Part shown: in pieces, positions 11,217-46,991 of the stretch | Position numbering within the stretch: the stretch's first letter is position 1 | Layout of the letters: the number at the start of each line of letters is the position of its first letter | DNA from: Burkholderiales bacterium | Lineage (GTDB): Bacteria; Pseudomonadota; Gammaproteobacteria; Burkholderiales; Casimicrobiaceae | Length of the DNA stretch: 47,230 bases | Assembly (NCBI GenBank): GCA_025927765.1 | Contig: JAICKU010000025.1 | Location: 1-47,230, forward strand | Direction of reading: 5' to 3' | The notes under the pieces: generated by a model | Told to the model about the DNA's origin: nothing | The model's database searches: none | Seen by the model: only the letters and a program-made list of their open reading frames with translations | Made by a program: the position numbers and the translations under genes

Positions 11217-11235
11217 TCCTCCGGAGCAGTCACCG

Positions 11236-12468: not shown

Positions 12469-12493
12469 ACCCTGTCTAAACAAGCCGTTTTGC

Positions 12494-12515: not shown

Positions 12516-12531
12516 CCGAAGGAACGAAATC

Positions 12532-17664: not shown

Positions 17665-17673
17665 AGGGAAGCG

Positions 17674-18447: not shown

Positions 18448-18523
18448 ATTGACGTATGCTCGCGGCGGCGCCGAACCGGCGAGCCGTTACAACGCCTTCC
18501 TACGCCATGACACTTCGAACTCC

Positions 18524-24162: not shown

Positions 24163-25122
24163 ATGCATCGCCCCCTTGCGCTTCTCGTTGCCGCCCTGGC
24201 ATTCCTGTCCGCCGCCCATGCGGCCGATCTGCCGCCCGACGTGCTCGCCAAGAGCCGGTGGATGGTGCTGACGCGCGCCGATTTCGACGCGGCGCTCCAA
24301 CGCGTGCCCGAGAACGCACGCTTCGAATTTGCAAGCGATCCCAAGCGCGTGAAGTCGGTACTGAACAACCTGCTCGTCATCAAGACACTCGCGGCGCAGG
24401 CGAAGGCGCACGGCACGAAGCCCGCAGCGTCGGGCGGCTACGGCGCGGGCAGTCCCGCCGAGCGGGCGCTCGCTGTCGGCGAACTTCAGCGTATTGAAGC
24501 CGACGCCGCGCGCAGCTTCGACGCCAACAAGGCGATCTGGGAAACGAAGGCGCACGAAATCTACATGCTCGACCGCGCCAAGTACCAGGTGCCCGAGGAG
24601 GTGCGCGTATCGGACATCGCGGTGGAGGTCAAGGATCGCGGCGAAGAGGCGGCGCTCGCGCGCGCCAGGGAAGCGCACGCCAAGCTCGTTGCCGGCGCCG
24701 ATTTCGCGACCGTCGCGAGAGAGTATTCCGACGATCCCACGACGCGCGACAAGGGCGGCGCGCTGCCGTTCGTCGCGCGTAATCGGCTCGCACCGTCGTT
24801 CGCGAAGGGCGTGTTCGCGCTGACGCGCATCGGCGAAATCTCCGAGCCCATCAGGGGCCCCACCGCTTGGCACATCGTGCGGCTCGACGAACGGCGCGCG
24901 GCGCGTCCGCAGACGTTCGATGAAGCGAAGGGCGCCATCCTCGCGTCGCTCAAGCAGCGCTACCTGGCCGACCAGCGCGAGGTGCGGTTCCGCGAGATCA
25001 ACTCGGACGCGACGCTCGAGGTCAACCAGCCAGCGATCGATGCGCTGGTGACGCACGCCGACCCGACGCAGGTCGGTGCCGCGCCGCCGGCAAAGCCCGG
25101 ACCCGAACCGAAGGCGAACTGA
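24163..25122 (+). CDS. Periplasmic parvulin-type peptidyl-prolyl isomerase
   Basis: A 319-residue protein with a signal peptide (MHRPLALLVAALAFLSAAHA, cut near residue 20), a helical SurA/PrsA-like chaperone region (about 25-140) and a rotamase domain (about 143-242). The rotamase signatures are VRVSDIAVEV, FATVAREYSDDPTTRDKGGALPF and PIRGPTAWHIVRLDER. It probably catalyses prolyl isomerisation or chaperones exported proteins in the periplasm. It precedes a polysaccharide exporter, and PPIases of this sort (EpsD-like) do occur in exopolysaccharide loci, so a role in export-complex assembly is possible but unproven. A Pro/Lys-rich tail ends the protein. Confidence 0.88.
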   Translation: MHRPLALLVAALAFLSAAHAADLPPDVLAKSRWMVLTRADFDAALQRVPENARFEFASDPKRVKSVLNNLLVIKTLAAQAKAHGTKPAASGGYGAGSPAERALAVGELQRIEADAARSFDANKAIWETKAHEIYMLDRAKYQVPEEVRVSDIAVEVKDRGEEAALARAREAHAKLVAGADFATVAREYSDDPTTRDKGGALPFVARNRLAPSFAKGVFALTRIGEISEPIRGPTAWHIVRLDERRAARPQTFDEAKGAILASLKQRYLADQREVRFREINSDATLEVNQPAIDALVTHADPTQVGAAPPAKPGPEPKAN

Positions 25123-25153
25123 TGCCGCACGCGCGGGCCGGCGCGCGAACCAC

Positions 25154-25975
25154 ATGATGCAGGGCGCTGCGTCCGCTTGGACGACCCGCGACCGCGCGAG
25201 CGTCCTCCGTGCGCGCGACCGCGCGCTGTTCGCGCATTTCCTGCGGCGCGAGCTCACGTCGCGCTATCTCGGCAGCGTCACCGGCCTCGCCTGGGCCCTG
25301 CTGTCGCCGCTCGCGCTCCTCGGCGTCTACGATTTCGTGTTCACGAACGTATTTCGCGCGACGGGCTTCGCGGGGTCGAGCTTTCTCGCGTTCGTGGCGG
25401 TTGCGCTGTGGCCGTGGATCGCCGCGCAGGAGGCGCTAATGCGCGGCACGTTGAGCCTGCCGGGCTACGCGGGCATGATCCGCAAGGTCGCGTTCCCGCA
25501 CGAGCTCGTCGTGCTCGCGTCGGTGCTCGCGACGCTCGCGCTCCAGTTCGCTGGCTACGTCGCCGTGCTCGTCGTGCTGAAGCTCATGGGACAGCCGATC
25601 CACCTCTCCGGCTTCGCGCTCGCCATTCCGATCTGGCTGATCGTCGCACTGGGGATCAGCGGCATCGCGCTCGCGCTCGCCGCCGTGCAGGTGTTCGTGC
25701 GCGACGTGGAGCACGTGCTCGCGCCGCTCTTGATGATCCTGATGTACGTGACGCCGATCCTCTATCCGGTGTCGCTGGTCCCGGAAAGCGTGCGGAGCAT
25801 TGTCGCAGCGAATCCGCTCGGCTGGGTCGTCGAGCGCCTGCGCGACGCGCTGCTCGATGGCCGGCTTGCCCTCGTGTGGAGCGATGCGATCGCGGTCGTG
25901 ACGGCGCTGCTGCTGTTCGCGGCGGGTCATTGGGTGTTCCGGCGCCTGTCGCCGCATTTCGAGGATTTCGTCTGA
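25154..25975 (+). CDS. wzm: Polysaccharide ABC exporter permease (Wzm/KpsM type)
   Basis: A 273-residue ABC-2 family inner-membrane permease. It has the amphipathic N-terminal part LFAHFLRRELTSRYLGSVTG, then six hydrophobic helices. The segment RYLGSVTGLAWALLSPLALL and the ending LIVAANPLGWVVE-like SIVAANPLGWVVERLRDALL are typical of O-antigen and capsule exporters. The start ATG at 25154 has a second ATG next to it (25157). Its stop overlaps the ATPase gene as TGATG, so the two are coupled and should form the export complex. Wzm (O-antigen) and KpsM (capsule) cannot be separated from sequence alone. Confidence 0.92.
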   Translation: MMQGAASAWTTRDRASVLRARDRALFAHFLRRELTSRYLGSVTGLAWALLSPLALLGVYDFVFTNVFRATGFAGSSFLAFVAVALWPWIAAQEALMRGTLSLPGYAGMIRKVAFPHELVVLASVLATLALQFAGYVAVLVVLKLMGQPIHLSGFALAIPIWLIVALGISGIALALAAVQVFVRDVEHVLAPLLMILMYVTPILYPVSLVPESVRSIVAANPLGWVVERLRDALLDGRLALVWSDAIAVVTALLLFAAGHWVFRRLSPHFEDFV

Positions 25976-27237
25976 TGACGCCAGACGCGGATGTGGTGGC
26001 GCGCAGCAAGACGATCGCGCCGGTGCGTGCAACGACACCGCCGCCGGAAAGCGAGCGCCCGACGACGCTGATGCGTCTTGCGCACGTGGGCAAGGACTAC
26101 GCGAAGATCGAGACGCGCGCAGGCCGCATGCGCCTCGTGTTCGACCTGCTGCGCGGGCGAGCGGCCGCGCACGCGTACCGCGCGCTCGACGACGTGTCGT
26201 TCACGCTCGAGCGCGGCGAATCGCTCGGGATCATCGGCGAGAACGGCGCCGGGAAGTCGACGCTGCTCAAGATCATCGCCGGCGTCGTCAAGGCCACACG
26301 CGGCGACGTCGACGTGCGCGGGCGCGTGGGCGCATTACTCGAGCTCGGCGCGGGCTTCCATCCCGAATACTCCGGCCTTGCGAACATCGACCTCGCCGCG
26401 GCGCTCCTCGGGCTTTCGCAGCGCGAGATCGCGTCGAAGCGCGACGAGATCATCGCGTTCGCCGATCTCGGCGACCACATCCGCGATCCGATCAAGCAGT
26501 ACTCGTCCGGCATGGTGGTGCGGCTCGGCTTTGCGGTCGCGACGGCGCTGTCGCCGGAAATCCTGATCACCGACGAGGTACTCGCGGTCGGCGACGAGTC
26601 GTTCCAGAAGCGCTGCGTGGCGTGGATGGAGCGCTTCCTCGACGGCGGCGGCACGCTGCTGCTCTGCTCGCACAGCATGTATCACATCCAGAAACTGTGC
26701 GCGCACGCGCTGTGGCTGAAGGACGGGCGCGTCGCGCAGTACGGTCCGGCCGAAGACGTCACGCGCGCGTACCTCGCGTACCACGAGGAGAAGTCGGCGA
26801 CGGCGAAGGCCGGGATGCCGCTCGCCGAAGCGAAGGCGTCGGGCGCGTACGCGATCGAGGCCCTCGACGCGAGCGCCGATCAGGTGTCGCAGGGCGACGA
26901 TGTCTCGCTGCGCGGTCGCGCCTACTCTCCGGACGGCCGCGCGCCGGTCGTCGTCGTCGGCATCGTGCGCGCCGACGGCACGCCGGTGTTCGGTATCGCC
27001 TCCGACATGGACGACGTCGCGGTTCGCCGCATCGGCGATCACGCGTTCGAGTTCTCGATCACGTTTCCCGCGCTGCCGCTTGCGCCGGGCAAGTACTGGC
27101 TGCGTGCGCACGCCGCGGATCCCGAAGGCATGCGCGTGTTCGATCACGTCGAGCGCGACCTCGTCGTGCGCGGCCGCACACGAGAGCTGGGGGTGGTGCA
27201 TCTCGCGCATCGCTGGCACGACGGCGTGGACCGTTGA
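25975..27237 (+). CDS. wzt: Polysaccharide ABC exporter ATPase with C-terminal domain (Wzt type)
   Basis: A 420-residue ATP-binding subunit that pairs with the upstream permease to move a lipid-linked glycan across the inner membrane. Walker A is GENGAGKST (88-96), the signature is YSSGM (176-180), Walker B is ILITDE (196-201), and the switch His is H233 in CSHSM. Residues from about 290 to 420 form an extra beta-rich domain with MRVFDHVERDLVVRG near its end. In Wzt proteins such a domain binds the modified end of the glycan before export. The product has a 30-residue Pro-rich N-terminal extension. Its stop overlaps the next start (TTGA). Confidence 0.92.
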   Translation: MTPDADVVARSKTIAPVRATTPPPESERPTTLMRLAHVGKDYAKIETRAGRMRLVFDLLRGRAAAHAYRALDDVSFTLERGESLGIIGENGAGKSTLLKIIAGVVKATRGDVDVRGRVGALLELGAGFHPEYSGLANIDLAAALLGLSQREIASKRDEIIAFADLGDHIRDPIKQYSSGMVVRLGFAVATALSPEILITDEVLAVGDESFQKRCVAWMERFLDGGGTLLLCSHSMYHIQKLCAHALWLKDGRVAQYGPAEDVTRAYLAYHEEKSATAKAGMPLAEAKASGAYAIEALDASADQVSQGDDVSLRGRAYSPDGRAPVVVVGIVRADGTPVFGIASDMDDVAVRRIGDHAFEFSITFPALPLAPGKYWLRAHAADPEGMRVFDHVERDLVVRGRTRELGVVHLAHRWHDGVDR

Positions 27238-32597: not shown

Positions 32598-33964
32598 TGG
32601 CGACGCCCGGCACGATCGACGTCGTCGTGCCCGTCTACAACGCCGCCGGCGACGTCCGCCGCTGCGTCGACGCGGTGCTCGCGTGCACGCCGGCGCTGAC
32701 GCGCCTCGTGCTGATCGACGACGGCTCGACCGATCCCGGCGTCGCCACGCTGTTCGACGAGCTCGCGTCGCGGCGCGACCCGCGCATCGAGCTTCTGCGC
32801 AACGCGCGCAACGAAGGCTTCACGTTCACCGCCAATCGCGGCATGCGGCAGGCGCGAGGCGACGTCGTGCTGCTCAATTCCGACACGATCGTGACGGCGG
32901 GCTGGCTCGAGGCGCTCGCCGCCTGCGCGGCGTCCGACGCGCGCATCGCGACCGTGACGCCGTTTTCGAACAATGCCGAGATCTGCTCGTTTCCGCGCTT
33001 CTGCGAGGACAACCCGTGGGCCGATGCCGAGCGCGTCGCGCGCGTGTTGCGCGAGCGCGCGGTGCCCACGTATCCCGACCTGCCGACGGGGGTGGGTTTT
33101 TGCATGTTCGTCCGCCGTACGGCGCTCGACGCGCTCGGCCTGTTCGACATGGCGTTCGGCGCCGGCTACGGCGAGGAGAACGATTGGTGCCTGCGCGCGG
33201 CGCGCGCGGGCTGGCGCAACGTGCTCGCGGACGACGCGTTCGTCGTGCATGCCGGCGGCCGCTCGTTCGAAGGACGCAAGGCCGATCTCGGGACGAAGAA
33301 CCTCGCGCTGATCGCGACGCGTTACCCGCATTACGACGCGATGGTGCGCGACTACGTCGCAGCCGATCCACTGCGGGCGATTCGCGACGCCGCGATCTCG
33401 CGCCTCGCGCTCGATCGTCACGAACGCGGCGTGCTGCATGTCGTCGACGAGGACGACGTCGCGGGCGAAGCGCGGGTTCGCGCGCGCGTGAGCGAATTGC
33501 GCGACACGAGCCGGCATTACCTCGCCATCGTTTCGGCTGCACGCTGTCGTTTCGAGGACCATGCGGGCGACCACGTCGTGCGCTTCGCATTCGACCGCGC
33601 GCCCGGCGAAGCGTGGCCGGATTTCTTTCGTGCGCTGGGGGCGACGTTTCGCGTGTCGCACGTCGAAGATCAGCGCCGCACCCACGGCGCGCCGGACACC
33701 GTGTTGCAGGAAGTGGAGTCCGGTGGCATGGCTTCGGCCGCCTTCCCGAACCGGCGCATCCGCGATGCGTTGGGATACCGCGCGTGGACGCCGCCGGCGG
33801 TTGCCGAAGGGGCGCTCGAAAACGTCGCCGCGCAGCCCGCGCCGCGCGGTGGCGTCTGGGCGCGGCGCGCGCGGGCGTTACGCGCCACCCGGATGGGACG
33901 GCTTTTGCATCGCGTCACGCCGGCACCGCTGATCGAGGCGCTGAAGGCGCGTCTCGGCAACTGA
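32597..33964 (+). CDS. Family 2 glycosyltransferase
   Basis: A 455-residue cytoplasmic GT-A enzyme. The N-terminus TIDVVVPVYNAAGDVRRCVD and VLIDDGSTDP are the nucleotide-sugar-binding parts; VVLLNSDTIVTAGWLEAL holds a DxD-like element (SDT) typical of the rhamnosyl/GT2 subgroup. GAGYGEENDWCLRAARAGW contains the ED-type catalytic base region. The last 170 residues form an additional domain with no motif I can name. The ATG overlaps the methyltransferase stop (TGATG), so the two genes are coupled. It most likely adds a sugar to the lipid-linked glycan. Confidence 0.92.
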   Translation: MATPGTIDVVVPVYNAAGDVRRCVDAVLACTPALTRLVLIDDGSTDPGVATLFDELASRRDPRIELLRNARNEGFTFTANRGMRQARGDVVLLNSDTIVTAGWLEALAACAASDARIATVTPFSNNAEICSFPRFCEDNPWADAERVARVLRERAVPTYPDLPTGVGFCMFVRRTALDALGLFDMAFGAGYGEENDWCLRAARAGWRNVLADDAFVVHAGGRSFEGRKADLGTKNLALIATRYPHYDAMVRDYVAADPLRAIRDAAISRLALDRHERGVLHVVDEDDVAGEARVRARVSELRDTSRHYLAIVSAARCRFEDHAGDHVVRFAFDRAPGEAWPDFFRALGATFRVSHVEDQRRTHGAPDTVLQEVESGGMASAAFPNRRIRDALGYRAWTPPAVAEGALENVAAQPAPRGGVWARRARALRATRMGRLLHRVTPAPLIEALKARLGN

Positions 33965-33966
33965 CG

Positions 33967-36900
33967 ATGGCGGCGAACGGATATGGCGCGTGGCTTGGCC
34001 GCGCGCGCGAGCATCATGTGGCCGGACGCATCATCGACGCGCTGCTTTGCTATCGTCGCGCCTTGCGCGACGAACCGCGCGGCGTCGACGCGCGCTTCCA
34101 CGTCGCAGAGATCGCCTGGCATACCGGGCAGCCCGCGCAGGCGATCGAGCAATGGCGTGCGCTGGTCGCGGACGTGCCCGCGCACGCGGCAAGCTGGCAC
34201 GCGCTCGCGGACGCGCTCGCCGCGGGGGGCGATTTCGCTGCGAGCCGCGATGCGATCGACCGCGTGATCGCGCTGCGCAGCGACGACGCGCGCGCGAGCG
34301 CGCTCGCGACGTTGCTCCGTCACGTGAGCGTCGATGACGCGAACGGCGATCGTGGCGACGACGCGCAACGCGAGCAGCTGCGCAGCGCGCTCGACGCCGG
34401 GCCCTGGCCGCTGCGCCTGCTCGTCGCGGTCGCGGAATCGGGCGCAGAGCGTGCCGAATCGAGCGCCGACGCGTCGATCGGTTCATCGGCGGTCGACATC
34501 GCGTCGGCCCTCGCGCGCGCGGCGCTCGCTGCGCCCGTCGCCCGTGGCGACGAGGATGCGCTTCGCCGCGTCGCAGTCGCGTTGCGCGCGGTCGGCCGGC
34601 ACGACGTCGCCGCGGAAATCGTCGCACGCTACGTGGCGGCCAGCGTTGCCTTGCACCGTTCACATCGTCCGTTGCAGTGGCCGGTTCGGGCGGCGGGCGC
34701 GCTTCGCGTGGGGCTGCTCGCAGCCGCGGGCGATGCGCAAGCCTGTCGCGACACGATCTCGCGCTCGTTCGGCGACGACGTCGAATGCATCGTCGTGCCG
34801 CCGTCGCTCGACACGCCGGACGTCGTCGCGCGTGCGCTCGTGGCCCGCGACCTCGACGTGCTGATCGACACGGGTGGTGTCGATCTTCCGTCCGCGCCGC
34901 TCCTCGCGCTGCATCCCGCACGGAACCTGTGGGCGATCGAGCGCGAGCGATGCCGCGCACGCGATGCCTTGTTCGAGCGCAGGTTCGATGCGACGGATCG
35001 CGACGCTTGGGTCGACGCGCTTCGCTGTGCGCGGCGCGACGTCGCGAACACGCCTTCGGCAGCGTTGACGCCGCGCGACCTCGACGAGCGATTCCAGGCA
35101 GCGGTGCTCGCCCATCGCCAGGGGGACGTGCAGGCCGCGCGCGACGCGTACGCATCGCTGCTCGAGATCGAGCCCGATCACGCGCCAACGCTGTACCTCG
35201 CCGGCGCGGCCGCCCGTGACGCGGGCGACGCGGAGAGTGCGCTCGCGCACTTTCGTGAAGCGGTCGCGGTCGCGCCCGAGTACGTCGACGCGCGCGTCGC
35301 ACTCGTTGCGGCGCTGATCGATCGTCGCGATGCCGATGCCGCCGTGGACGTCGCGCGCGAAGGCTTGTCGCTCGAGCCGGCATCGGCGCCGCTGCAGCGC
35401 GCGCTCGGCCAGGCCGAACTCGCGGCGGACCGCGCCGACGCGGCGATCGCGGCTTTCGCAGGCGCGCTCGCCCACGATCCCACGAACGGCGATGCGCATT
35501 ACAACCTCGGCGTCGCGCTGCAGACCGCGCACCAGGCGGGCGAGGCGGCGCGCGCGTACCAGCGCGCGCTGGCGTTTCGTCCCGATCTCGATGCGGCGCA
35601 CTTCAACCTCGGCGTCGTGTTCGAGCAGCAGGGGCGGGCCGACGCGGCGATTGCGGCGTTCTCGCATGTCCTGCAGCACGCGCCTTCGCACGTGCCCGCG
35701 TTCAAGGCGCTCGCCGACGCGCTGCTCGCCACGGGACGCGTCGAGGCGTGGTACGCGAACTTCGAGCGGTTCGAGAAGCAGGCGCCGGCGCAGGTCGCGC
35801 TCGCCGTCAATGCGCTCGAGGTGAGCGCGTATCGCGGCGACTTCGAGCGCGTCGAGCGCTACCTCGACGGGCTGCGACACGGCCGCTTCACCGCGGAACG
35901 CGCGGACGAGATGCTCGACGCGCTGCAGCAACTCGTCTACCTGCTGCATTTCTTCGACGTCGAGGCCGACCTGATCGGCCGCTACGCGCGCACGCACGAC
36001 GCGCTGTCGCAAAACATGTACGGCGAGCCGATGCCACGCGGACTCGAGCGGCGCCCGGGCAGGATTCGCATCGGGTACCTGTCCGGCGACTTCCGCAATC
36101 ACGTGATGGGCAAGATGATGTACGAGGCGCTGCGCCATCACGACCACGAGCGGTTCGAGATCTTCGGCTACGCGACGACCGCGGCGCGCGACGCATGGAC
36201 GTCGAGTTTCGAACCGCTGTTCACGCGCTTCACGTGCGTCGACGCACAAAGCGATCGCGAAGCTGTCGCCGCGATCGCCGCCGACGATCTCGACGTGCTC
36301 GTCGACCTGTCCACGCACACGAAGGGCGCGCGTCCCGGCATCCTGGCGCGCAAGCCCGCGCGCGTGCAGATCACCCACGTCGCGAGCGCGGGCACGCTCG
36401 CCATGTCGGCGATCGACTTCAAGCTCACCGACCGCTACGCCGATCTCGCGCACGACCCGGCGCATCAGATCGAGCCGCTGCTCGCGATGAGCGGCTGCGT
36501 GTATCCGTATCGTCACGTTGAAGCCTCGCCGAACGCGCCGTTCAGCCGCGCGTCGCTCGGGATCGACAAGGATGCGGTCGTGATTGCAGCGTTCTCGACG
36601 CCGCTCAAGCTGTCGCAACGCTGCCTGGCACTGTGGCGCGACGTTTTCGCGCGGCTGCCGAACGCGCGGCTTGCGTTCTCGCCCGTACATCCAGGGCTTC
36701 GTCCGGCATTCCTCCGCCTCGCGGCGCTAGCCGGCGTCGGCGCGCATCGCGTCGTGTTCGTGCCGCAGGGACGCGACGACGCGGAGAACCAGGCACGCTA
36801 TCGCGTCGTCGACTTCGTGCTCGATCCGATGCCGTACGGCGGCGTGAACGGTACGCTCGAAGCGCTCGACATGGGCGTGCCCGTCGTCACGCTGATCGGT

Positions 36901-37170
36901 CGCCGCCACGCGGAGCGCACGTCGTTCTCGATCCTGTCCAATCTCGGCGTCACGGATACGATCGCGCAGTCGGGCGCCGATTACGTCGCGATTGCGGTGC
37001 GGCTCGCGACCGACGCGGCATTCCAGCGCGACGTGCGACAGCGCATTCGCGACGACATCGCGCATTCGGCGCTCACCGACATGGTTGCGCATACGCGCCA
37101 CCTCGAGGACGCGTACGTGCAGGCGCTCGAAGCGCGTGCGCCGGAAGCGCTGATGCGCGGGCCGCGATGA
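33967..37170 (+). CDS. Large TPR protein with O-GlcNAc transferase-like (GT41) domain
   Basis: A 1067-residue protein. An N-terminal TPR-like helical part (about 10-115) and a helical linker are followed by an odd alpha/beta segment (245-350), TPR repeats at about 375-600 (for example HYNLGVALQTAHQAGEAARA) and a C-terminal OGT/SPINDLY-like catalytic region (about 698-1055). The catalytic part has RIRIGYLSGDFRNHVMGKMM, DLDVLVDLSTHTKGARPG, a conserved Lys in FSTPLKLSQ (K881), and the nucleotide-binding DPMPYGGVNGTLEALDMGVP. GT41 enzymes transfer sugar to proteins. The segment at 245-350 (LRVGLLAAAGDAQ and ARDLDVLIDTGGVDL) looks like a degenerate copy of the first catalytic lobe. It overlaps the next gene by ATGA. 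Confidence 0.88.
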   Translation: MAANGYGAWLGRAREHHVAGRIIDALLCYRRALRDEPRGVDARFHVAEIAWHTGQPAQAIEQWRALVADVPAHAASWHALADALAAGGDFAASRDAIDRVIALRSDDARASALATLLRHVSVDDANGDRGDDAQREQLRSALDAGPWPLRLLVAVAESGAERAESSADASIGSSAVDIASALARAALAAPVARGDEDALRRVAVALRAVGRHDVAAEIVARYVAASVALHRSHRPLQWPVRAAGALRVGLLAAAGDAQACRDTISRSFGDDVECIVVPPSLDTPDVVARALVARDLDVLIDTGGVDLPSAPLLALHPARNLWAIERERCRARDALFERRFDATDRDAWVDALRCARRDVANTPSAALTPRDLDERFQAAVLAHRQGDVQAARDAYASLLEIEPDHAPTLYLAGAAARDAGDAESALAHFREAVAVAPEYVDARVALVAALIDRRDADAAVDVAREGLSLEPASAPLQRALGQAELAADRADAAIAAFAGALAHDPTNGDAHYNLGVALQTAHQAGEAARAYQRALAFRPDLDAAHFNLGVVFEQQGRADAAIAAFSHVLQHAPSHVPAFKALADALLATGRVEAWYANFERFEKQAPAQVALAVNALEVSAYRGDFERVERYLDGLRHGRFTAERADEMLDALQQLVYLLHFFDVEADLIGRYARTHDALSQNMYGEPMPRGLERRPGRIRIGYLSGDFRNHVMGKMMYEALRHHDHERFEIFGYATTAARDAWTSSFEPLFTRFTCVDAQSDREAVAAIAADDLDVLVDLSTHTKGARPGILARKPARVQITHVASAGTLAMSAIDFKLTDRYADLAHDPAHQIEPLLAMSGCVYPYRHVEASPNAPFSRASLGIDKDAVVIAAFSTPLKLSQRCLALWRDVFARLPNARLAFSPVHPGLRPAFLRLAALAGVGAHRVVFVPQGRDDAENQARYRVVDFVLDPMPYGGVNGTLEALDMGVPVVTLIGRRHAERTSFSILSNLGVTDTIAQSGADYVAIAVRLATDAAFQRDVRQRIRDDIAHSALTDMVAHTRHLEDAYVQALEARAPEALMRGPR

Positions 37171-39389
37171 CCACGAAATCGGCACTCGAGCACGCCCGGG
37201 CGCGACTTGCCGCGGGCGACATCGCAGGCGCGCGCGCCGAATGCGCCGCACTCGCCGATGCAGCGGATGCGGCGGATGCCGCGGCGGCCCACCTTCTCCT
37301 GTCCGCGTGTGCTGAACGTGCGGGCGATGCAGCGCTCGCCGAGCGGCACGTCGACGCCGCGCTCGCACGGCATCCGGTCGATGCGCTCGCGCACTACGCC
37401 AAGGCGCAGTTCGCCGAGCGCCGCCGCGATGCGAACGCGGCGATCGCGAGCCTCGAGGAAGCTGTCCGTCACGCGCCGTCCTTTGTCGCAGCGCATCAGT
37501 TGCTCGGCATCCTCCGTGGCGAGCAGGGCGACGCGAAGCGCGCAGCGGACGCGTTCGCGCGCGTCGTGGCGCTCGATCCGCGCAACGCGCGCGGCTTCAA
37601 CAATCTGGGCAATGCGCTGCGCACGCTCGGCCGGTTCGACGAGGCGCGCGTCGCGTTCGAGCGCGCCGTCGTGCTGAAGCCCGACTACGAGCTCGCGATT
37701 GCGAACGTGGCGGTCACCTGGCGCGATGGCGGGCAAGGCGCACGCGCCGAGGCGCTGCTCGGGGCCGCGTTGTCGCGGCCGCGTAGCCAGCCGCCGCTCC
37801 GTGCGATCGTCGTCGCGCTCGCGGGTCTGTTGCGCGAGCGCGGCGCGCTCGACGAAGCGATGCCGCTCTACGAGCAGGCGATCGCGCAGGCGCCGCAGGA
37901 CAGCGCCGGCGAATGGTTCAACCTCGGGCGCGTGCATGCGGAACGCGACGACCTGCCGCGTGCGGTCGACGCGTACCGCCGCGGCCACGCGCTCGATCGC
38001 CGCGACCTGCGCGGGGCGCTCGGCGCGCGCCTGTCGCTGCCGATGATCTACGGCGACGCCGACGACGTGACGCGCGCGCGCGAGCGCTTCGCCGAAGGCC
38101 TCGCCGAGTTGCACGAGCGCGTCGACGAGCTCGTGCACGGCCTGCAGCCGAACGACGTGCTCGACGGGCTGCGCTGGACGAACTTCTTCCTCGCGTACCA
38201 GGGCCGCAACGATCGCGCGCTGCAGGCGTCGTACGGGCAATTCGTGCAGCGTGCGATCGCCACCGCGGCGCCGCAATGGCGCGAGGTGCCCCGAGCGCAG
38301 CATCGATCGCGCGAACGCATGCGCGTGGGCTTCGCATCGGCGTTCTTCCACGACGGCACGGCCGGTCGCTACTTCCGTAGCTGGATCGCCGACCTCGACC
38401 GCGAGCGCTTCGAGGTGTTCGTGTACCAGCTGCATCCGGGCGACGACGCGATCGCGCGCGAGATCGCGGCGCGCGCCGATCGCTTCGTCGAGTTCGGCGG
38501 CAGCCGCGCGCGGCCGTCTGTGGTCGCGGCCGCGATCCGCGACGATGCGCTCGACGTGCTGGTGTTTCCCGAGCTCGGCATGGACCACACGACGTTCGCG
38601 CTGGCCGCGCTGCGGCTCGCGCCGCGCCAGCTCGCCGGCTGGGGCCACCCGGTGACGAGCGGGCACGCGACGATCGACGTGTTCGTGACCTGCGGGGCGA
38701 TGGAGCCGCCGGACGCCGACGCGCATTACACCGAGAAGCTCGTGCGGCTGCCGGGCATCGGCACGTCGTACCGGCGCCCGCAGGTGCCGGAGCCCGCGCC
38801 GCGCGCGCGTTTCGGCCTCCCGGAAGATCGGGTGCTGTTCCTGTGTCCGCAGTCGCTCTTCAAAGTCCATCCGGACAACGATGCGCTGTTCGCGCGCGTG
38901 CTCGCGGCCAATCCGCGCGCATCGCTCGTGATGTTCGACGGACGCCACCCACGCGTTACCGATCGCTTCGTCACACGTCTTCACCGCGTGTTCGACGCCC
39001 ACGGCGTCGCGCCGCAGCGGCTGATCGTGCTGCCGCCGCAGCCGCACGACGATTACCTGCGCATCAACCTCGCATGCGACGCGATGCTCGACACGCTCGA
39101 CTGGTCGGGCGGCAACACGAGCCTCGACGCGCTCGCCTGTGGCCTGCCGGTCGTCACGCTGCCGGGGACGTACATGCGCGGCCGGCAGAGTGCGGCCATG
39201 CTGGACATCGTCGGCGCGCAGGAACTCGTCGCGACGAGCGCCGGCGACTACGTCGCGATCGCGACACGCGTCGCGGACGATGTCGCGTGGCGCACGCGGT
39301 TGCGCAAAACGATCGGCGACGCCGTGCCGTCGCTCTTCGACGATCAGGCGCCGGTGCGCGCGTTCGCCGAGGTGCTCGCCACGCGCTGA
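37167..39389 (+). CDS. Second TPR/O-GlcNAc transferase-like (GT41) protein
   Basis: A 740-residue protein with TPR repeats over about residues 5-280 (for example [20 protein letters not shown]) and an OGT-like catalytic region over about 385-735. The catalytic half shows [20 protein letters not shown], a conserved Lys in [11 protein letters not shown] (K566), and the sugar-nucleotide-binding [20 protein letters not shown]. Compared with the upstream paralogue it lacks the extra N-terminal 350 residues. The pair is translated in tandem (ATGA) and may act on the same or related acceptors. It ends in a 46-bp tail-to-tail overlap with the minus-strand gene that follows. Confidence 0.9.
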
Positions 39390-41677
39390 AGATCGCGGTC
39401 GAGCGCGCCGCGCAGCGCCGTCACCGCGCTCGCCCAGTCGCCGATCGCAGGCTGACGCACGAGTCGCGCGCTCGGATACCACGGCGTGCGCTCACCGGAG
39501 AGGCCCCAGCGCCAGTCGGGCGCATAGGGCAGCAGCACGTGGACGCGCTTGCCGAGTGCACCGGCGAGATGCGCGATGCTCGTGTCGACGGTCACCACCC
39601 CGTCGAGGGCGTCGATGAGCGCCGCCGTGAACGCGAGCGGCGTGTTCGGATCGAGCGGAACGACGTTTCGCGCCGCCGCAAGCGCCGCGAGTTGCGAAGC
39701 GGCGGGACCGATCTGCAGCGACTGCCACAGGACGCCGGGCAGCGAGAACAGCGGCGCGAGCGCGGCGAGCGTCATCGAGCGGCGAGCGTCGTTGCGATGA
39801 CGCGGCGAGCCGGCCCAGGCGACGCCGATGCGAAACGTCCCATCGGCAGAGCGTGCAGCAAGCGTGGCTTCCGCCGCCTCGCGGCGGACGGGATCCGCCG
39901 CGAGATACGCGCCGCTCGTGCCGACGTCTTCCGCTGACAGGCCGAGCCGATGCGGCAGCGACAACAGCGGCAACTCGAACTCGCAATCGTCGATGGCCGC
40001 GCCGCTGGCAATCGTCTCGTGCACGCCCCTCGCAGTCGCGAGCAACGGCTGCAGCGCGGGCACGGCCTCCACGACGACGTGCGCGCCGCGTTCGGCAAGA
40101 TACCGGGCGAAGCGCACGAACTGGATCGCATCACCGAGCCCCTGCTCCGCCGAAAGCAGGATGCGCCTGCCCGCGAGGTCTTCGCCCTGCCATCGACGAA
40201 GCGAACGTTGCCGGATCGGTCCCGAAAGTTCGGGAATGCGAAGCCGCCACTCGTACTCGGCGAGTCCTTCGGCATGGTCGCCCGACGCGAGCAACGCGAG
40301 CGCGAGGTTCCAGTGCGCATGGGCGAACGATGGCGCCGCGGCGAGCGCTCTCCGGAACGCATCGATCGCCTCATCGAGCCGGTTCGCCGCCTGCAGCACG
40401 AGCCCGAGGTTGTTCCACGCGGTCGCGTGCGTGGGCTTCAGGGCGAGCGCGCGACGGTAGGCGTCGACCGCCGCATCGTTGCGATCGAGTGCCGCGAGCG
40501 CGAGCCCGACGTTGTTGTGGAACTCGGGTTCGTCCGGCACGAGCGCCGCCGACCGCTCGAGCAGCGGCAGCGCCACGGCGGCGTCGCCGCGCTGATACGT
40601 GACGACGCCGAGGAAATGCATCGCGAGCGGATGGCCTGCATCGAGTGCGAGCGCTGCGCGGTAGTCGCGCTCGGCGGCTGCAAGATCGCCGCGTTGGTGC
40701 GCGGCGAGTCCGCGTTGCGCGAGGCTTTGCGCCGACGACGCCGGGGGGCTCGCGCGCGCGGGCGGCGCGGGTTGCGCCGCATTTCCGAGCGCGCCGTGGC
40801 ACTGCTTGTACCGCTTGCCGCTGCCGCAGGGACACGGATCGTTGCGCCCGACGATCGGACCTTGCGCGAGGCCCGCGTCGGCGCGCGCGAGCAGCGTCCG
40901 CATCTCCGCATCTTCCGGCATCGCCGCGAGCCGGCGCCGTGCAAGCGCGGCGGCCGGCTCCCATTGGGCGAGCGCGACGCAATTGCGAACGAGTTGCGCG
41001 AGTTGCAACGAGCGCGCGATCGCGTCGGAGAACATCGGCGCGAGTGCTGCGAGCTCGGACGGCGGCACCGTGCGACAGAAGTTGTAGAGCCCGTGGAAGC
41101 CGAACGGCATGCCGGCCGGATAGGCGGCTTCGAACGCGAAGCGATCGGCGAGCGCTTCCGGCGCGAAGCGGATGCCGAACTCGCGCTCGAGCAGCGGCCG
41201 GTACGTGCGCCCGATCGTGACGTCCTCGGCGTCGACGAGTTCGATGCGCGGGTCCTGCAGCGCGTCGAGGAGCTTGCGCGAGCGCAGCGAAAATCCGCCG
41301 TTGCCCACGCGCATTGCGTCGTCGTACCAGTACCACTTCGCGCCGATGTAATCGCAGTCGAGGAACGCGGTGTCGAACGCCTGCGGATTGACGACGTAGC
41401 CGTCCCATTGCACGAGCAGCACGTGCGGCGTCGCCACGTGTTCGGCGAGCGACTTCAGCACGAAGCGCGAGTAGTCGTCGCGCGAGGCGAGCGGCGCGAT
41501 GGGTACGACATCGATGCCGCCCGGCACCATGACGTCCGGTGGGACCGCATCCGTGAAGAATGCGATGCGACCGAAGCGTACGCCGCGCAGCGAGCGCTCG
41601 AGCGCGCGCAGCGCGAGCGCGTGGTTGCGCGTGTCGACGCAGGCGAGCGTGACGCCGGGAAGCTCGAGCGTCGTCAT
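39344..41677 (-). CDS. Multidomain protein: DUF5672, SEC-C, TPR and GT9-like
   Basis: A 777-residue protein with an unusual domain order. Residues 1-230 resemble DUF5672 glycosyltransferase-like proteins ([34 protein letters not shown]). Residues 276-295 form a SEC-C zinc motif (C282, C284, C293, H294 in [18 protein letters not shown]). TPR repeats span about 317-480, and residues 503-760 resemble family 9 heptosyltransferases ([19 protein letters not shown], then [20 protein letters not shown]). It could add one or two sugars through its end domains. The ATG complementary to 41675-41677 overlaps the previous gene (ATGA). Its stop lies within the convergent OGT-like gene. Confidence 0.85.
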
Positions 41678-43092
41678 GCGGCTGCGGCAGTGATCGGGCC
41701 GCTCGCGGCGATCTGCTTTCGCCACGCGTCGACGATGAGCGTCATCCAGACGATCGCGAGCGGCGCGATGTGCAGCAGCGCACGATTGATCGTGGTCTGC
41801 CCGGCCACCCAGTCGCGAGCGTTCGTGAACGCGAACACGACGGCGAGGAACGCGAGGCCCGCGGCGACGATCGCCGACAGCGGCGCGAGCGCCGGAGTGC
41901 GCACCACGCGCCAGCCGACGATGGCGGTGGCGATGAACGCGTACCAGAGCAGGTTCCAGTTGCCGAGCAGGAACAGGCTGTCGACGAGCCCCTGCCACGG
42001 CGGCGCGAAATCGAGGTGCAGCCGATAGCCGAGCACCACCGGATGCGTCTGCGCGAGCACGAGCAGCGCGAACAGGGCCACGAGCGCGCCCGCGCCGAGC
42101 ACCCGCGGTGCGCGACGGCCGGCCAGCACCACGACGAGCGCGGGCACGAGCGTCAGCGCCCACACGATGCCCGGCGTCTTGATCGTCGGGCACGCGACCG
42201 CAAAGAGCAGGGCGAGCAGAAGATCGGCGAGTGCGCGCGATCGCGTCCAGCGCCATAGAGCGACGGCGGCCGCGGCGTAGTACACCGCCATCGGAAAGTC
42301 GGCGTAGCCCGCGAGCGCGACGTGGATGTTGGCGAGCGGCAGCGACGACGCGAGCCACGCGCCGATCATGCTGCCGATCGGCGGCAGGCCCGCGTCGCGC
42401 AGCGCGCCGTACACGGCGAACGCGAGTGCCACCGCGACGATCCACCACGGCACGTTCATCAGCGCGTCGTCGAAGCGGCCGAGCGCCAGGCTCGACCACA
42501 CCTGCCACAACGGTACGGTGGCCGGGTAGTTGGGCGACGCGTCGTGCCATACGCTGCCGTTCGCCGCGAACCACGCCTCGCTGCCTGCGAACGGCACCAT
42601 GTGGCCGAGCGCATACCAGACGCGCGCCTTGGTGGCCCACTGGATCCACGCATCCCACGGATACAGCGGCGTCCACACGATGTCGAGCAGAAGCAGTGCA
42701 AACCGCACGGCGAGCCAGGCGACGAGCGCAAACCAGAGCGCGCGCATCGCGGGCGACATCGATGCGTTGCTTCGCTCTTCCGCGAACACGACACCGCGAT
42801 GACGCTGGAAGGCCATGAGCCACACGCCGATGCCGATCGCAGCGAGCGCGAGCGGAAGCGCGATCGTCGCGATGCCGAAGCGAAGTCCCGCGAACGACAA
42901 CACCCGCATCCAGAGCGTGAGCACGAACATGCCGGCGAGCGTTCCGGCACCGAGCGTCCACGCCGGGTGGCTGTGCCCTCGCAACGCGACTCGCGTTTCG
43001 AACCGCTGTGGATGCGACAGCACCACCACCAACGCCACGCCGAACAGTGCGACGAGCGCCCAGGCAGCGCCGAGCCGCAGGGTGTCGATCAT
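41674..43092 (-). CDS. Polytopic membrane protein, GT-C-like
   Basis: A 472-residue protein with about eleven hydrophobic helices. The loop after one of the early helices contains [20 protein letters not shown]; an Asp in a WDAW context near the membrane is common to a group of bacterial GT-C-type glycosyltransferases. A second Trp-rich loop includes [20 protein letters not shown]. The start ATG (complement of 43090-43092) overlaps the upstream gene by 4 bp. It would transfer a sugar from a polyprenyl carrier on the periplasmic face if the assignment holds. Membrane topology is secure; the enzymatic role is inferred. Confidence 0.72.
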
Positions 43093-44390
43093 CGGCGTGC
43101 CTCGTGCGCGGCGGTGGCGTCCGCGGTCGCGGTCGATGCCGTGCCCTGCAGCGCGAACAGCGCACCGCCGTGCTCGAGCAGGCGCAGTTCGGCCGGAATC
43201 GTGACGCCTTCGAAGCGCAGGCGCTTCCTGGCCGCGTCGTACTGCACGCCGCGACGCTCGTAAACGACCAGCCAGTCGCCGCTCTTGAGTTGCGAAGGCG
43301 GCGGCAGCACGTCGTGGTAGGCGTCGAACCACACGTTCAGCGGATAGAGGTGATACGCGGCGCGGCCGCGGAAAAAGTCGGCGTTCGCGACCACGAACAC
43401 GCGGGCGCCGCGCTCGGGCATCAGCCGGCGCGCATCGTCGATGAACGCGTAGAGATTCGCGTCGTCGGCGGCGAGGTGCTTCGCGTGCAAATCCTTGCCC
43501 GCGTAGCGGCGCGCCGCGAGGTCGACGTTATGCGCGAGATTCTTCGTCCAGCGCGCATCGAGCACGAGCCAACCGGCGAGCACCAGCGCGATCGAGCCCG
43601 ACGCCAGCGCGGCCGCGGCGCCGCGACGATGCGCCATCCAGGCGAAGACGCCGATCGCGAGCGCGATCGCGCATGCGAGCAGGAGCGGCAGCGGCAGCGC
43701 CTGTCCGTCCGCGCCGCCCGCGATCGTGTTGATCGACGCGCCTGCGAACGTTTCCGGCGTCAGCCATTCGTCGACCCGATCGCGCAGCGTGCTCGCGGCA
43801 TCGCCGGATTTCGCGACGGCGCCCTGGATTTCGACCGGCTGCTCGAAGCGACCGTTCAGCACGAGGCCCAGTCCCGCGATGCGCCCGAGCCAGTGCGCAT
43901 TCCCCTGCAGGTCGATTGGCATCGCCCGGCCCGAGACGACGTCGAGCGGCACCGTGTTGACGCGCGCAGGCTCGACATCGGTGCGCCAGAGGAGCGCAAC
44001 CTTGACGCCCGCGGGAACGTTCTCGACGCGAAACGCGACGATCGGAAAGTCGCGGGCGCGAAAGTCGCTCGTGACCGACACGATCGCGTTGCCGTCGTCG
44101 CCCGGTTGCGTGACGACCAACCGGCCGTTCGCCACGTCGCCGCTGCCGCGCGTGATGGCGAGGCGGTCGACACCGAACGACAGGTCGCTCGTCCCGGCGA
44201 ACCAGCGCGACGATGCGAGCGCGAGATACGCGATCAGACATGCGGCGAGGCTTGCGACGAAAAGCGCGGCGACGAACCGCGGCGAGAAACTGCGCGCAGG
44301 CGGGGTGGCGGGCGTCGGCGCGGGCGGCGCGACGACGTCCGCGGGCGCGTCGGCGCTCAGTGCGCGTTGCGGGTCGTCAGGATGTGCCAA
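43089..44390 (-). CDS. Membrane protein of unknown function in the glycan cluster
   Basis: About 433 residues. The N-terminus is Pro/Ala-rich, then a helix ([18 protein letters not shown]), a beta-rich periplasmic domain of about 180 residues (contains [20 protein letters not shown]), two or three further helices ([20 protein letters not shown] and following) and a C-terminal soluble domain with [21 protein letters not shown] do not recognise a family. The start is uncertain: TTG 44390 is used here, GTG 44423 is possible, and a CTG at 44360 would overlap the upstream stop in the same style as other overlaps here. It is coupled at its end to the GT-C-like gene (ATGA), which suggests a partnership. 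Confidence 0.75.
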
Positions 44391-45748
44391 ATCGTCAACG
44401 CGAGGATGCGCAGGTCGAACCACGGCGACCAGTGCTCCACGTAGTACAGATCGTATTGTATGCGCTGCGACAGGTCGCTTGCGCCGCGCAGGTCGTTCAC
44501 CTGCGCCCAGCCGGTGATGCCGGCCTTGACGATGTGCTTCTGCATGTAGCCGGGCACGCGATCGCGGAATTGCGCGACGAATTCCGGCCGTTCCGGACGC
44601 GGTCCGACGAGTGACATCTCGCCGCGCAGCACGTTCAGCAGTTGCGGCAATTCGTCGAGCGACAGGCGTCGCAGCAGCGCCCCGAACGGCGTCGCGCGCG
44701 TTTCGCCGTGCACCGACCATACCGGTCCGCTCGTCTTCTCGGCATCGACCGGCATCGTGCGGAACTTGAGCATCGAGAACGCGCGGCCGTTCCACGTCAC
44801 GCGCTCCTGACGATAGATGACCGGGCCGGGCGAGGTGAGCTTGATGGCGATCGCGATCGCGACGAACAGCGGCAGCGTCGCCACGACGAGGAGTGCCGCG
44901 AGCACGTAATCCTCGATTGCCTTCCACGAGGCGCGCGCGTCGCCGAGCGGGGTGTCGGTGAGGTTCAGCACGGGCATGCCGGCCATCTCGCTCACCGAGT
45001 GGTTGATCAGGTGGAAGCCCTGGATGTCGGGCACGAAGCGGATCAGCGCCGGCGTCACGCGCAGGCCCTCGGCGCAGGCGCGGATGCGCGCCTCCTCGTG
45101 CAGCGGCAGCGCGATCCACACTTCGTCGGCGGGCTCGTCGATCAGGTCCTGCGGCAGCCGCTCGATCGGACCTTTGATGGGTACGCCGCCGTCGACGCGG
45201 CCGATGTCGTGCGCATCGTCGCTGTAGAAGGTGCGCACGGACAGCCCGGTCCACGGCGCGTGGCGCAAACGCTCGGCGACGTTGCACGCGTGCGAGCCGC
45301 TGCCCACCACCACCACGTGGCGCAGGTTGCGGCCGCGCCGGCGCAGGGCGCGTAGTGCGAGGCGGATCGCCGCCCGCCACAGCACGTGCACCGCGAAACC
45401 CCCACTCACGAGCATCAGCACCCACGCGCGCGAGATCGTGGCGCCGGTCTTCGTCAGGAACAGGAATACGGCGCCAGAGAGCGCGATGGCGAGCCACGCG
45501 ACGAACAGGCGCCCGATTTCGTCGCCGAAGCTCGTGCCGCGGCGCGACTGGTAGAGGCCGACGGCGGGAAAGATCGCGAAGCCGAGGAACGCGGCCGCGC
45601 CCATCGCGACGAGGTATCGCTGCGGCGGGCCTTCGAAGTTGGGGTGAATGACGTAGGCGACGTACGCAGCCAGCACGACGTACATCGGATCGACGACGCG
45701 CAGCGTTCGCTCGAGGAGCGTCGAGTTGTCCTTGAGGATGCTGCGCAT
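44357..45748 (-). CDS. Polyprenyl-phosphate sugar-1-phosphate transferase (WbaP/WcaJ type)
   Basis: A 463-residue initiating transferase that moves a sugar-1-phosphate, often glucose, to undecaprenyl phosphate and so starts glycan assembly. Four N-terminal helices (to about residue 130), a CoA-binding-like Rossmann region (HVVVVGSGSHACNVAERLR) and the C-terminal catalytic domain are present. The catalytic part has the re-entrant helix region VATLPLFVAIAIAIKLTSPG, YRQERVTWNGRAFSMLKFRT, LLRRLSLDELPQLLNVLRG and SLVGPRPERPEF, all strongly conserved. It starts at the ATG complementary to 45746-45748. This is the best evidence that the locus builds a glycan on a lipid carrier. Confidence 0.95.
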   Translation of the reverse strand: MRSILKDNSTLLERTLRVVDPMYVVLAAYVAYVIHPNFEGPPQRYLVAMGAAAFLGFAIFPAVGLYQSRRGTSFGDEIGRLFVAWLAIALSGAVFLFLTKTGATISRAWVLMLVSGGFAVHVLWRAAIRLALRALRRRGRNLRHVVVVGSGSHACNVAERLRHAPWTGLSVRTFYSDDAHDIGRVDGGVPIKGPIERLPQDLIDEPADEVWIALPLHEEARIRACAEGLRVTPALIRFVPDIQGFHLINHSVSEMAGMPVLNLTDTPLGDARASWKAIEDYVLAALLVVATLPLFVAIAIAIKLTSPGPVIYRQERVTWNGRAFSMLKFRTMPVDAEKTSGPVWSVHGETRATPFGALLRRLSLDELPQLLNVLRGEMSLVGPRPERPEFVAQFRDRVPGYMQKHIVKAGITGWAQVNDLRGASDLSQRIQYDLYYVEHWSPWFDLRILALTIWHILTTRNAH

Positions 45749-45763
45749 CGCTACGCGATTACG

Positions 45764-46879
45764 TCACGACAGGATCGTGGTGAAGTGAGCGGCGAACTCG
45801 TCGCGAAAGCGCTGCCGGGAGAAGCGCTCGGCGTTGCGGCGGCAATCGTCGGCGGCGATGGTCGTGGCTTCGAAGCGCAGCACGGCGTCGACGATCGCGT
45901 CGGACGATTGCTCGTCGAACAGCACGCCGGTCGGCCGGGCGTCGTCGAGTCCGCGGATCGTCTCGCCGACACCGCCGCGCCCGTAGGCGATCACCGGCGT
46001 GCCGGCCGCCTGCGCTTCGAGGGGCGCGATGCCGAAATCCTCGCACGCGGCGAACACGAATGCGCGGGCACGACCGACGGCGCGCGCGGTGGCGTCGTCG
46101 TCGAGGCGTCCGGCGAGCGCGACGTTCGGCGGAAGATTGCGCGCGAGGCGGGCACGCTCCGGGCCGTCGCCGACGATCGTCAAGCGTCGTGTGGGGAGCC
46201 GCCGAAAGGCCTCGATCACGAGATCGACGCGCTTGTACGGCACGAATCGCGTCACGGTGACATAGCCTTCGCGCTCGCTGCTCGCCTCCCGCGCGAACCG
46301 TGCGACGTCGACCGGCGGGTAGATGACGTGCGCGTCGCGACCGTAGCACCGGCGGATCTCGGCGGCGATGTGGTTCGAGTTGGCGACGAAGTGGTCGACG
46401 TCCCGGCTGGCGGCAAGATCCCATTCGCGAAACCGGGCCTGCACGCGTTCCGCGAGGCCCGCGCGCCATCCGGGCGTCGAGGCGACGCGGTCGCGGTAGG
46501 TGTGGGCCATCGCCCAGGCGAAGCGGGCGGGCGAGTTGCAGAAGCAGATGTGCGTTTGGCCGGCGCGCTTGCGCACGCCCTTGGCGACGGCGTGCGACAC
46601 GGACACGACGACGTCATAGGCCGAGACGTCGAACCGCTCGACGAGCGACGGAAACAGCGCCGCGGCGTAGCGAAACCAGGATCGGGCGCCGGGTAGGTGC
46701 TGCAGCGGCGAAGTCCGGATGGCGGCGGGGCCGAGCCGTCGTCGCTCGCTCGGCGTCAGGAAGTCGACGAGCGTGAACACGGGCGCGGCGGGAAAGAGCT
46801 CGAGCAGCGCCGAGAGCACGTCCTCGCCGCCGCCCGGGGCCTCCAGCCAATCGTGGACCAGTGCGACGCGCTGATGCAA
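45764..46879 (-). CDS. Family 4 glycosyltransferase
   Basis: A 371-residue GT-B enzyme. The N-terminus RVALVHDWLEAPGGGEDVLS is the acceptor side; the C-terminal half has the retaining GT4 motif VFAACEDFGIAPLEAQAAGTPVIAYG, read as FAACEDFGIAPLEAQ with both Glu of the EX7E motif. HFVANSNHIAAEIRRCYG and TRFVPYKRVDLVIEAF are further hallmarks. The best start is a TTG at 46879 preceded by a strong GAGGAG ribosome site eight bases away; the frame continues upstream but is Arg-rich and overlaps control sequences. It is the first gene of the minus-strand half of the cluster, divergent from the rRNA promoter. Confidence 0.93.
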   Translation of the reverse strand: MHQRVALVHDWLEAPGGGEDVLSALLELFPAAPVFTLVDFLTPSERRRLGPAAIRTSPLQHLPGARSWFRYAAALFPSLVERFDVSAYDVVVSVSHAVAKGVRKRAGQTHICFCNSPARFAWAMAHTYRDRVASTPGWRAGLAERVQARFREWDLAASRDVDHFVANSNHIAAEIRRCYGRDAHVIYPPVDVARFAREASSEREGYVTVTRFVPYKRVDLVIEAFRRLPTRRLTIVGDGPERARLARNLPPNVALAGRLDDDATARAVGRARAFVFAACEDFGIAPLEAQAAGTPVIAYGRGGVGETIRGLDDARPTGVLFDEQSSDAIVDAVLRFEATTIAADDCRRNAERFSRQRFRDEFAAHFTTILS

Positions 46880-46911
46880 GCAGGTAGCTCCTCGAAGGTC
46901 GCAAGCATACC

Positions 46912-46930
46912 GGCGCGGAGGCGCCGCGCC
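46912..46930. other. GC-rich hairpin in the divergent gap
   Basis: GGCGCGG (46912-46918) and CCGCGCC (46924-46930) form a perfect 7-bp stem with a 5-base loop. It lies upstream of the GT4 gene, just beyond a TATGCT element (complement of 46904-46909) that could be its -10 box. The gap 46880-47230 holds only control sequences and no gene. Confidence 0.4.
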
Positions 46931-46991
46931 TCGTCTTGCCGTGCAACTGGGGCGACGGTGCGCGTGCGTGGCCAAAACGTGGAGAGGGGTG

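What the first reader, a model, noticed from the sequence alone, without database searches (positions are those of the whole stretch)
39344..41677. DUF5672-SEC-C-TPR-GT9 multidomain protein
One chain joins a DUF5672 glycosyltransferase-like domain, an intact SEC-C zinc motif (C282, C284, C293, H294), TPR repeats and a heptosyltransferase-like domain. SEC-C in SecA binds SecB and ribosomes, so here it could place a two-headed glycosyltransferase near nascent or exported proteins. I know of no described function for this combination.
Basis: partly seen in the sequence, partly recalled or inferred. Interest (0 to 1): 0.75.

Follow-up and report, generated by a model that had tools for sequence, protein, structure and literature searches.

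The report
Two-headed glycosyltransferase with SecA-like metal finger
A soluble bacterial protein that joins two sugar-transferring enzyme domains to the same kind of small metal-binding finger that the protein-export motor SecA uses to touch its chaperone and the ribosome, which suggests, but does not show, that some sugars are added to proteins on their way out of the cell.

Summary
Window 39344-41677 (-) encodes 777 aa: DUF5672 (59-195), SEC-C (278-295; C282, C284, C293, H294), TPRs and a GT9 domain, each above its Pfam cut-off. It is not a misassembled fusion: 50 of the 80 best loci found elsewhere encode the same order, mostly in Betaproteobacteria (Nitrotoga, Thiobacillus, Hydrogenophilus). 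AlphaFold and Foldseek give DUF5672 a GT-A fold. The SEC-C is 19/20 identical to a SecA metal-binding domain, and the genome has SecB.

In the window's family the gene sits in a conserved glycan operon facing TPR-GT41 genes; elsewhere it adjoins DUF4254 or housekeeping genes.

Best reading: a cytoplasmic two-headed glycosyltransferase whose SEC-C-TPR module docks it to export-bound polypeptides at the ribosome or SecB. Folds, conservation and the modular adaptor are supported by computation; activity, protein acceptor and Sec docking are inferred. Lipid-linked glycan synthesis is nearly as likely. I found no described activity in the open-licence papers searched.

The parts
39344..41677 (-). 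Whole gene, 777 aa, ATG start, soluble (no hydrophobic segment above the threshold used)
   Evidence: simple hydropathy scan
41063..41677 (-). DUF5672 domain (residues 1-205; Pfam stretch 59-195), GT-A fold; invariant QWD 90-92, GNGG 125-128, ED 151-152, H195
   Evidence: (62 sequences)
40793..40846 (-). SEC-C motif, residues 278-295, ligands C282 C284 C293 H294
40253..40729 (-). Tetratricopeptide repeats, residues 317-475 (ten helices at 316-480 in the model, about five repeats)
39398..40216 (-). GT9 (heptosyltransferase-like) domain, residues 488-760; invariant EQGxGD 511-516, H703, R723, W733, Q742
41674..43092 (-). Upstream polytopic membrane protein, about ten hydrophobic segments, no Pfam match at E 0.1; homologue in 11 of 44 loci (start inferred)
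43089..44360 (-). Conserved protein with three hydrophobic segments, no Pfam match (start not determined); homologue in 11 of 44 loci
44357..45748 (-). Polyprenyl-phosphate sugar transferase type protein (PF02397 + CoA_binding_3), WbaP/WcaJ-like (those names recalled)
45764..46975 (-). Glycosyltransferase with Glycos_transf_1 and Glyco_transf_4 domains (GT4-like)
36633..39389 (+). TPR-GT41 protein, convergent (start uncertain)
32683..37170 (+). TPR-GT41 protein, convergent (start uncertain)

Best explanation
A soluble cytoplasmic protein glycosyltransferase with two active heads. The GT-A head (DUF5672) and the GT-B head (GT9) add two different sugars in sequence to one acceptor. The TPR superhelix holds the acceptor polypeptide, as in FlmG. 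The SecA-like SEC-C finger brings the enzyme to unfolded export substrates at the ribosome exit or on SecB. Supported by computation: two GT domains with conserved motifs, one chain kept over distant relatives, and SEC-C-TPR as a reusable adaptor on several transferases. Inferred: both heads active, acceptor is a protein, SEC-C docks to SecB or ribosome.
For: Full order in 50 of 80 loci; motif residues of both heads invariant in 42 sequences. The DUF5672 model (pLDDT 96.4) matches GT-A enzymes (TMq 0.50-0.61 over the 50 rows shown). The full model's best PDB matches are SPINDLY and OGT, protein glycosyltransferases. SEC-C is 19/20 identical to the SecA domain 1sx0, and 16/21 identical (20/21 identical or similar) to the SecA chain of 1ozb, the MBD-SecB complex according to PMC6620043. 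In 55 of 55 frames with DUF5672 and SEC-C the three Cys, a His or Cys as fourth ligand, R3, R/K14, Y/F15 and K16 are kept. SecB present. Of 20 further SEC-C proteins scanned (chosen because they bear the motif), 17 carry a GT or sulfotransferase domain above cut-off, five of them GT41. No hydrophobic segment. FlmG precedent: TPR domain needed to bind flagellin, GT-B domain glycosylates.
Against: No acceptor protein identified. The own genome has no flagellin, and 15 of 21 DUF5672-bearing genomes lack it. The operon holds a PF02397 sugar transferase and the window an ABC exporter with a Wzt_C match, which fit lipid-linked glycan. GT9 is best known from LPS core synthesis (recalled). SEC-C is missing in L100, L119 and L120. 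Of 17 stand-alone DUF5672 genes with flanks, 12 have no TPR-GT9 hit in the fetched DNA, so DUF5672 does not need that partner. The match to SPINDLY/OGT is weak in geometry (TMq 0.17-0.28, rmsd above 12 A) and may rest mainly on the repeats.
Confidence: 0.38

Rival explanations
1. It makes a surface polysaccharide or LPS: DUF5672 and GT9 add two sugars to a lipid-linked acceptor, and SEC-C-TPR is a scaffold that gathers the enzymes of the operon.
For: Operon order GT4-type, PF02397 sugar transferase, two proteins with hydrophobic segments, then this gene, complete in 6 of 44 loci, with the polytopic neighbour in 11 of 44; ABC-2 permease and Wzt_C-bearing ATPase in the window; a gene recognised by eye as lpxK about 8 kb away in Nitrotoga. 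Classical GT9 role (recalled).
Against: Eleven other loci (the L112-L133 group) share a neighbourhood of a lytic transglycosylase, an epimerase-type protein and, in 10 of 11, a hydrolase; I saw no glycan cluster there, but only three neighbour families were scanned. A SecA-type finger has no obvious role in glycan synthesis. GT41 enzymes of the same cluster belong to a family known for protein acceptors (recalled).
Confidence: 0.37
2. The SEC-C finger is a redox or iron-responsive structural element that controls oligomer state or activity, without any link to Sec, as a metal finger is required for assembly of TibC, a heptosyltransferase of autotransporters.
For: TibC iron finger needed for dodecamer and activity; iron proposed as ligand of SecA-like domains; ligands kept as C-C-C-H (34 of 55) or C-C-C-C (21 of 55).
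Against: Non-ligand basic and aromatic residues are also kept in 55 of 55, more than a purely structural finger would need; the finger lies outside the GT9 domain, which has one cysteine, C565.
Confidence: 0.2
3. One of the two heads is catalytically dead and acts as a sugar- or acceptor-binding module.
For: Double-headed transferases with an inactive half exist (recalled); the Pfam GT9 match covers only 50 profile positions.
Against: Motif residues of both heads are invariant across 42 sequences, and each head occurs in other genes without the other.
Confidence: 0.05

Closest known systems
FlmG, flagellin O-glycosyltransferase of Caulobacter crescentus (PMC7591256; passages seen)
   Same: Cytoplasmic pathway; N-terminal TPR domain used for binding the polypeptide, C-terminal GT-B domain
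   Different: FlmG is described there as TPR domain plus GT domain (596 residues), without SEC-C or GT-A head in the passages seen; its substrate is flagellin, absent from this genome
TibC/BAHT autotransporter heptosyltransferases (PMC4358343; passages seen)
   Same: Heptosyltransferase compared there with GT-B enzymes; metal finger; acts on proteins that are exported
   Different: TibC's finger has four Cys in an insertion of the C-lobe; here the finger is of SecA type and lies about 190 residues before the GT9 domain, which has one Cys; the passages name no TPR or GT-A head
SecA C-terminal metal-binding domain; E. coli YecA and YchJ (PMC6620043, PMC8076867; passages seen)
   Same: 19 of 20 residues of the SEC-C motif identical to a SecA domain
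   Different: There a tail of SecA; here between a GT-A domain and TPRs of an enzyme; position 14 is Arg in 54 of 55 where the SecA chain has Lys
OGT / SPINDLY (GT41 with TPR)
   Same: TPR superhelix fused to a GT domain; top PDB structure matches
   Different: The Pfam GT41 model does not match the protein; SEC-C and GT-A head are not part of those enzymes (recalled)

Membership tests
SEC-C (PF02810) | C-X-C-X8-C-[HC] motif above curated cut-off | tested here: met
   38.6 bits against 20.4; ligands invariant 17 of 17
SEC-C (PF02810) | Binds SecB and ribosomes like the SecA domain | not testable with these tools
   Only sequence identity and presence of SecB
DUF5672 (PF18922) | Profile match above cut-off | tested here: met
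   58.3 bits against 24.4
GT-A glycosyltransferases | GT-A fold | tested here: met
   Foldseek matches to alpha-1,3-galactosyltransferase, chondroitin synthase, B3GalT6, LgtC and others, TMq 0.50-0.61; the class label GT-A for these is recalled
GT-A glycosyltransferases | Acidic metal/donor site (DXD-like) | tested here: inconclusive
   D92, D109, E151, D152 invariant in 62, but no DXD and no assignment of roles; metal-independent GT-A enzymes are among the matches
GT9 (PF01075) | Profile match above cut-off | tested here: met
   26.2 bits against 22, partial profile; TIGR02193 far below its cut-off, 27.8 against 185.3
GT9 (PF01075) | ADP-heptose transfer | not testable with these tools
   No assay
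BAHT (TibC-like) | Four-Cys iron finger inside the catalytic C-lobe | tested here: not met
   One Cys (C565) in the GT9 domain
FlmG-type flagellin glycosyltransferase | TPR domain followed by a C-terminal GT domain | tested here: met
FlmG-type flagellin glycosyltransferase | Flagellin substrate in the genome | tested here: not met
   No Flagellin_N match in the own genome, 95.6% complete
GT41 / OGT | PF13844 match | tested here: not met
   Absent from the 22 families listed at E 0.1

The most novel reading that the evidence does not exclude
SEC-C-TPR is a Sec-docking adaptor that defines a class of bacterial transferases (GT2, GT4, GT9, GT41, WbsX, sulfotransferase) which modify export-bound proteins on the ribosome or on SecB before translocation; the window protein is the two-sugar member of that class.
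Probability: 0.28. Interest if true: 0.88.

Novelty: new variant of a known kind. Interest (0 to 1): 0.6.

Why it matters
[quoted passage not shown] A SecA-type finger built into a family of transferases would make that question directly testable. The work also gives DUF5672 a predicted fold and a frequent partner; the one paper listed for that name does not mention it in its main text.

Tried and rejected
Misassembled fusion: rejected (50 of 80 loci). Flagellin glycosylation as the role here: rejected; of the 37 family genomes 6 have flagellin, and these 6 also have DUF5672, while 15 DUF5672 genomes lack it (most are incomplete). TibC-type iron finger in the GT9 domain: rejected. Sequence search of the GT9 region against PDB: no match at E 10. 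Whole-protein PDB searches: the 60 rows shown of 121 and of 278 lie over the TPR region and say nothing on the heads. NCBIfam: none of the 25 families shown of 26 reaches its cut-off. Literature for the combination: 1 paper; 2 papers; 73 papers with three of five terms, 15 listed; the titles and abstract starts listed describe no such protein; of these papers only that was searched inside.

Sampling limits. The match list was cut. From it I took 40 regions by hand, mostly leaving out SecA-length frames and frames already known to hold DUF5672. The pattern found 52 SEC-C frames in these and in L003 and L004, but missed L181, whose finger has CHSG for CGSG. Of the 28 frames picked without DUF5672, 20 were scanned with Pfam: 15 carry a GT domain above cut-off (GT41 5, GT2 8, GT4 2), 2 only a sulfotransferase, 2 only sub-cut-off matches, 1 (L003) no catalytic match; 18 of 20 have a Pfam TPR match at E 0.01 (not L174, L183). 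Not scanned there: L167, L168, L170, L175 (both), L179:4954, L188; L004 was scanned (GT2). The motif pattern fixed C7, C9, G10 and S11 by construction and dropped 2 of 55 frames (L117, L118); one search shows that both keep the ligands and the basic residues.

Full report
Observation. The gene at 39344-41677 (-) encodes 777 aa starting at an ATG that overlaps the stop of the upstream gene. Pfam finds DUF5672, SEC-C, several TPR models and Glyco_transf_9, each above its cut-off. The GT9 match is partial, but the C-terminal region aligns along 42 homologues with invariant EQGxGD, H703, R723 and W733.

Is it real? Full-length relatives exist in the genus and family at 38-71% identity. A scan of genome contigs found 171 relatives, of which the best 80 were kept. 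With profiles made from the first alignment: 50 of 80 show DUF5672-SEC-C-TPR-GT9 (three of them, L077, L090 and L114, cut by contig ends within a domain); 3 show DUF5672-SEC-C-TPR and 2 DUF5672-SEC-C, four of these five running to a contig end (not L123); 1 (L100) has DUF5672-TPR-GT9 without SEC-C; 2 (L119, L120) are TPR-GT9-DUF5672-TPR-GT9 without SEC-C; 1 (L149) is TPR-DUF5672; 21 show DUF5672 alone. Four of the 21 are short or cut (L104, L127, L137, and L109, whose remainder lies in another frame). Of the other 17, four have a TPR-GT9 gene as neighbour (L129, L131, L146, L148), L132 has one 1.4 kb away, and 12 have none in the fetched DNA. The four are not a fair sample, since in them the TPR-GT9 gene itself was the part reported as the match. 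So the pair is found fused, adjacent and apart: a frequent but not obligate partnership. Record titles include Candidatus Nitrotoga, Thiobacillus, Hydrogenophilus and Casimicrobiaceae; many are MAGs. In 61 genomes searched, DUF5672 occurs in 21, all in the window's family (21 of 37; 0 of 24 in other families of the order), though one search finds it in further families of the class.

Folds. The AlphaFold model of the whole chain has mean pLDDT 89.8 and pTM 0.66, with ten helices at 316-480 as in TPRs. Its PDB matches are led by SPINDLY and OGT at low TM-scores, so this shows likeness of the general TPR/GT plan, not of detail. The DUF5672 domain alone (pLDDT 96.4) matches chondroitin synthase subunits, alpha-1,3-galactosyltransferase, the metal-independent bacterial enzyme 4ayl/4ayj, B3GalT6 and LgtC, which are GT-A enzymes (class recalled). 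Invariant in 62 sequences are Q90 W91 D92, D109, G125 N126 G127 G128, E151 D152 and H195.

SEC-C. The motif is 19/20 identical to the SecA domain of 1sx0 and 16/21 identical to the SecA chain of 1ozb. In 55 frames with both DUF5672 and SEC-C (53, 2 more), the three Cys are kept, the fourth ligand is His in 34 and Cys in 21, R3, K16 and Y/F15 are kept in all, and position 14 is Arg in 54 and Lys in one. Among the 52 SEC-C frames of related genomes, Arg stands there in 33 of the 34 that bear TPR, DUF5672 or a transferase domain, and Lys in 17 of 17 others (mostly C-terminal fingers, not scanned), with one left unclassified. This hints at a separate lineage; no tree was made. The genome has SecB. 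Published work reports that the SecA domain binds SecB and that a fusion bearing it sediments with ribosomes.

A shared adaptor. The own genome has four SEC-C matches: SecA (by eye), this protein, a SEC-C-TPR protein with no catalytic Pfam match (C141) and SEC-C-TPR-GT2 (C58). In related genomes, 20 SEC-C proteins without DUF5672 were scanned: GT41 in 5, GT2 in 8 (two with WbsX, two with a sulfotransferase above cut-off), GT4 in 2, sulfotransferase alone in 2, sub-cut-off matches only in 2, none in 1; 18 of 20 also match a TPR model. SEC-C-TPR-GT9 without DUF5672 also exists (L022, L031; no DUF5672 match in those genomes). So SEC-C-TPR is a module placed before many transferases.

Context. In the window's family the order GT4, PF02397 sugar transferase, conserved protein, polytopic protein, this gene is complete in 6 of 44 loci, and 11 of 44 have the polytopic protein upstream and a GT41-cluster gene next downstream; many loci are too short to show it all. 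The window has the same order, with homologues by BLAST, but no SEC-C-TPR-GT41 gene directly downstream. In Nitrotoga, Thiobacillus, Hydrogenophilus and relatives a gene of the DUF4254 cluster (one representative scanned) lies 0-53 bases away in 14 of 44 loci. In a third group of 11 loci the shared neighbours are a lytic transglycosylase, an epimerase-type protein and mostly a hydrolase. The context leans to glycans in one clade and is silent in another.

Mechanism. The chain has no hydrophobic segment. I favour a cytoplasmic protein glycosyltransferase with two heads, TPR for the acceptor and SEC-C for the place of work. Supported: anatomy, folds, conservation, modular reuse. Inferred: activity, acceptor, docking. 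The rival, lipid-linked glycan synthesis with SEC-C-TPR as scaffold, is nearly as likely on the operon evidence. FlmG and TibC are the nearest working models; it fails a defining feature of each (flagellin; iron finger in the C-lobe), so it is filed as a member of neither.

Novelty. The parts are known; the combination and the adaptor pattern were not found in print with the searches, which cover open-licence papers only and of which one search listed 15 of 73. I therefore call it a new variant of a known kind.

Noticed in passing
window 36633-39389 and 32683-37170 (+): Two TPR-GT41 proteins convergent with the gene; in several sister genomes (such as L170, L173, L182, L184, L187, L189) a SEC-C-bearing gene follows the homologue directly, GT41 in the five scanned; no such gene lies there in the window.
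   Followed up: partly
window 9516-20791 (+): Type II secretion genes (E, F, G, H, K, M and D by Pfam above cut-off, C just below) beside the glycan cluster, preceded by thiamine, UbiA and cytochrome oxidase genes.
   Followed up: no
window 25076-27237 (+): ABC-2 permease and an ATPase with a Wzt_C-type C-terminus, as in O-antigen or capsule export.
   Followed up: no
L086:12315-13037 and 13 further loci: A protein of the DUF4254 cluster lies 0-53 bases from the homologue in 14 of 44 loci, on either strand.
   Followed up: partly
L120:9878-13384, L119:4671-8264: Single frames with TPR-GT9-DUF5672-TPR-GT9, three transferase domains, no SEC-C hit.
   Followed up: partly
L179:2543-4957, L186:2447-4846: SEC-C-TPR-WbsX-GT2 proteins followed directly by another SEC-C-bearing gene.
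   Followed up: partly
SEC-C position 14: Arg in 33 of 34 TPR- or transferase-bearing SEC-C frames against Lys in 17 of 17 others: a possible marker of one lineage.
   Followed up: partly
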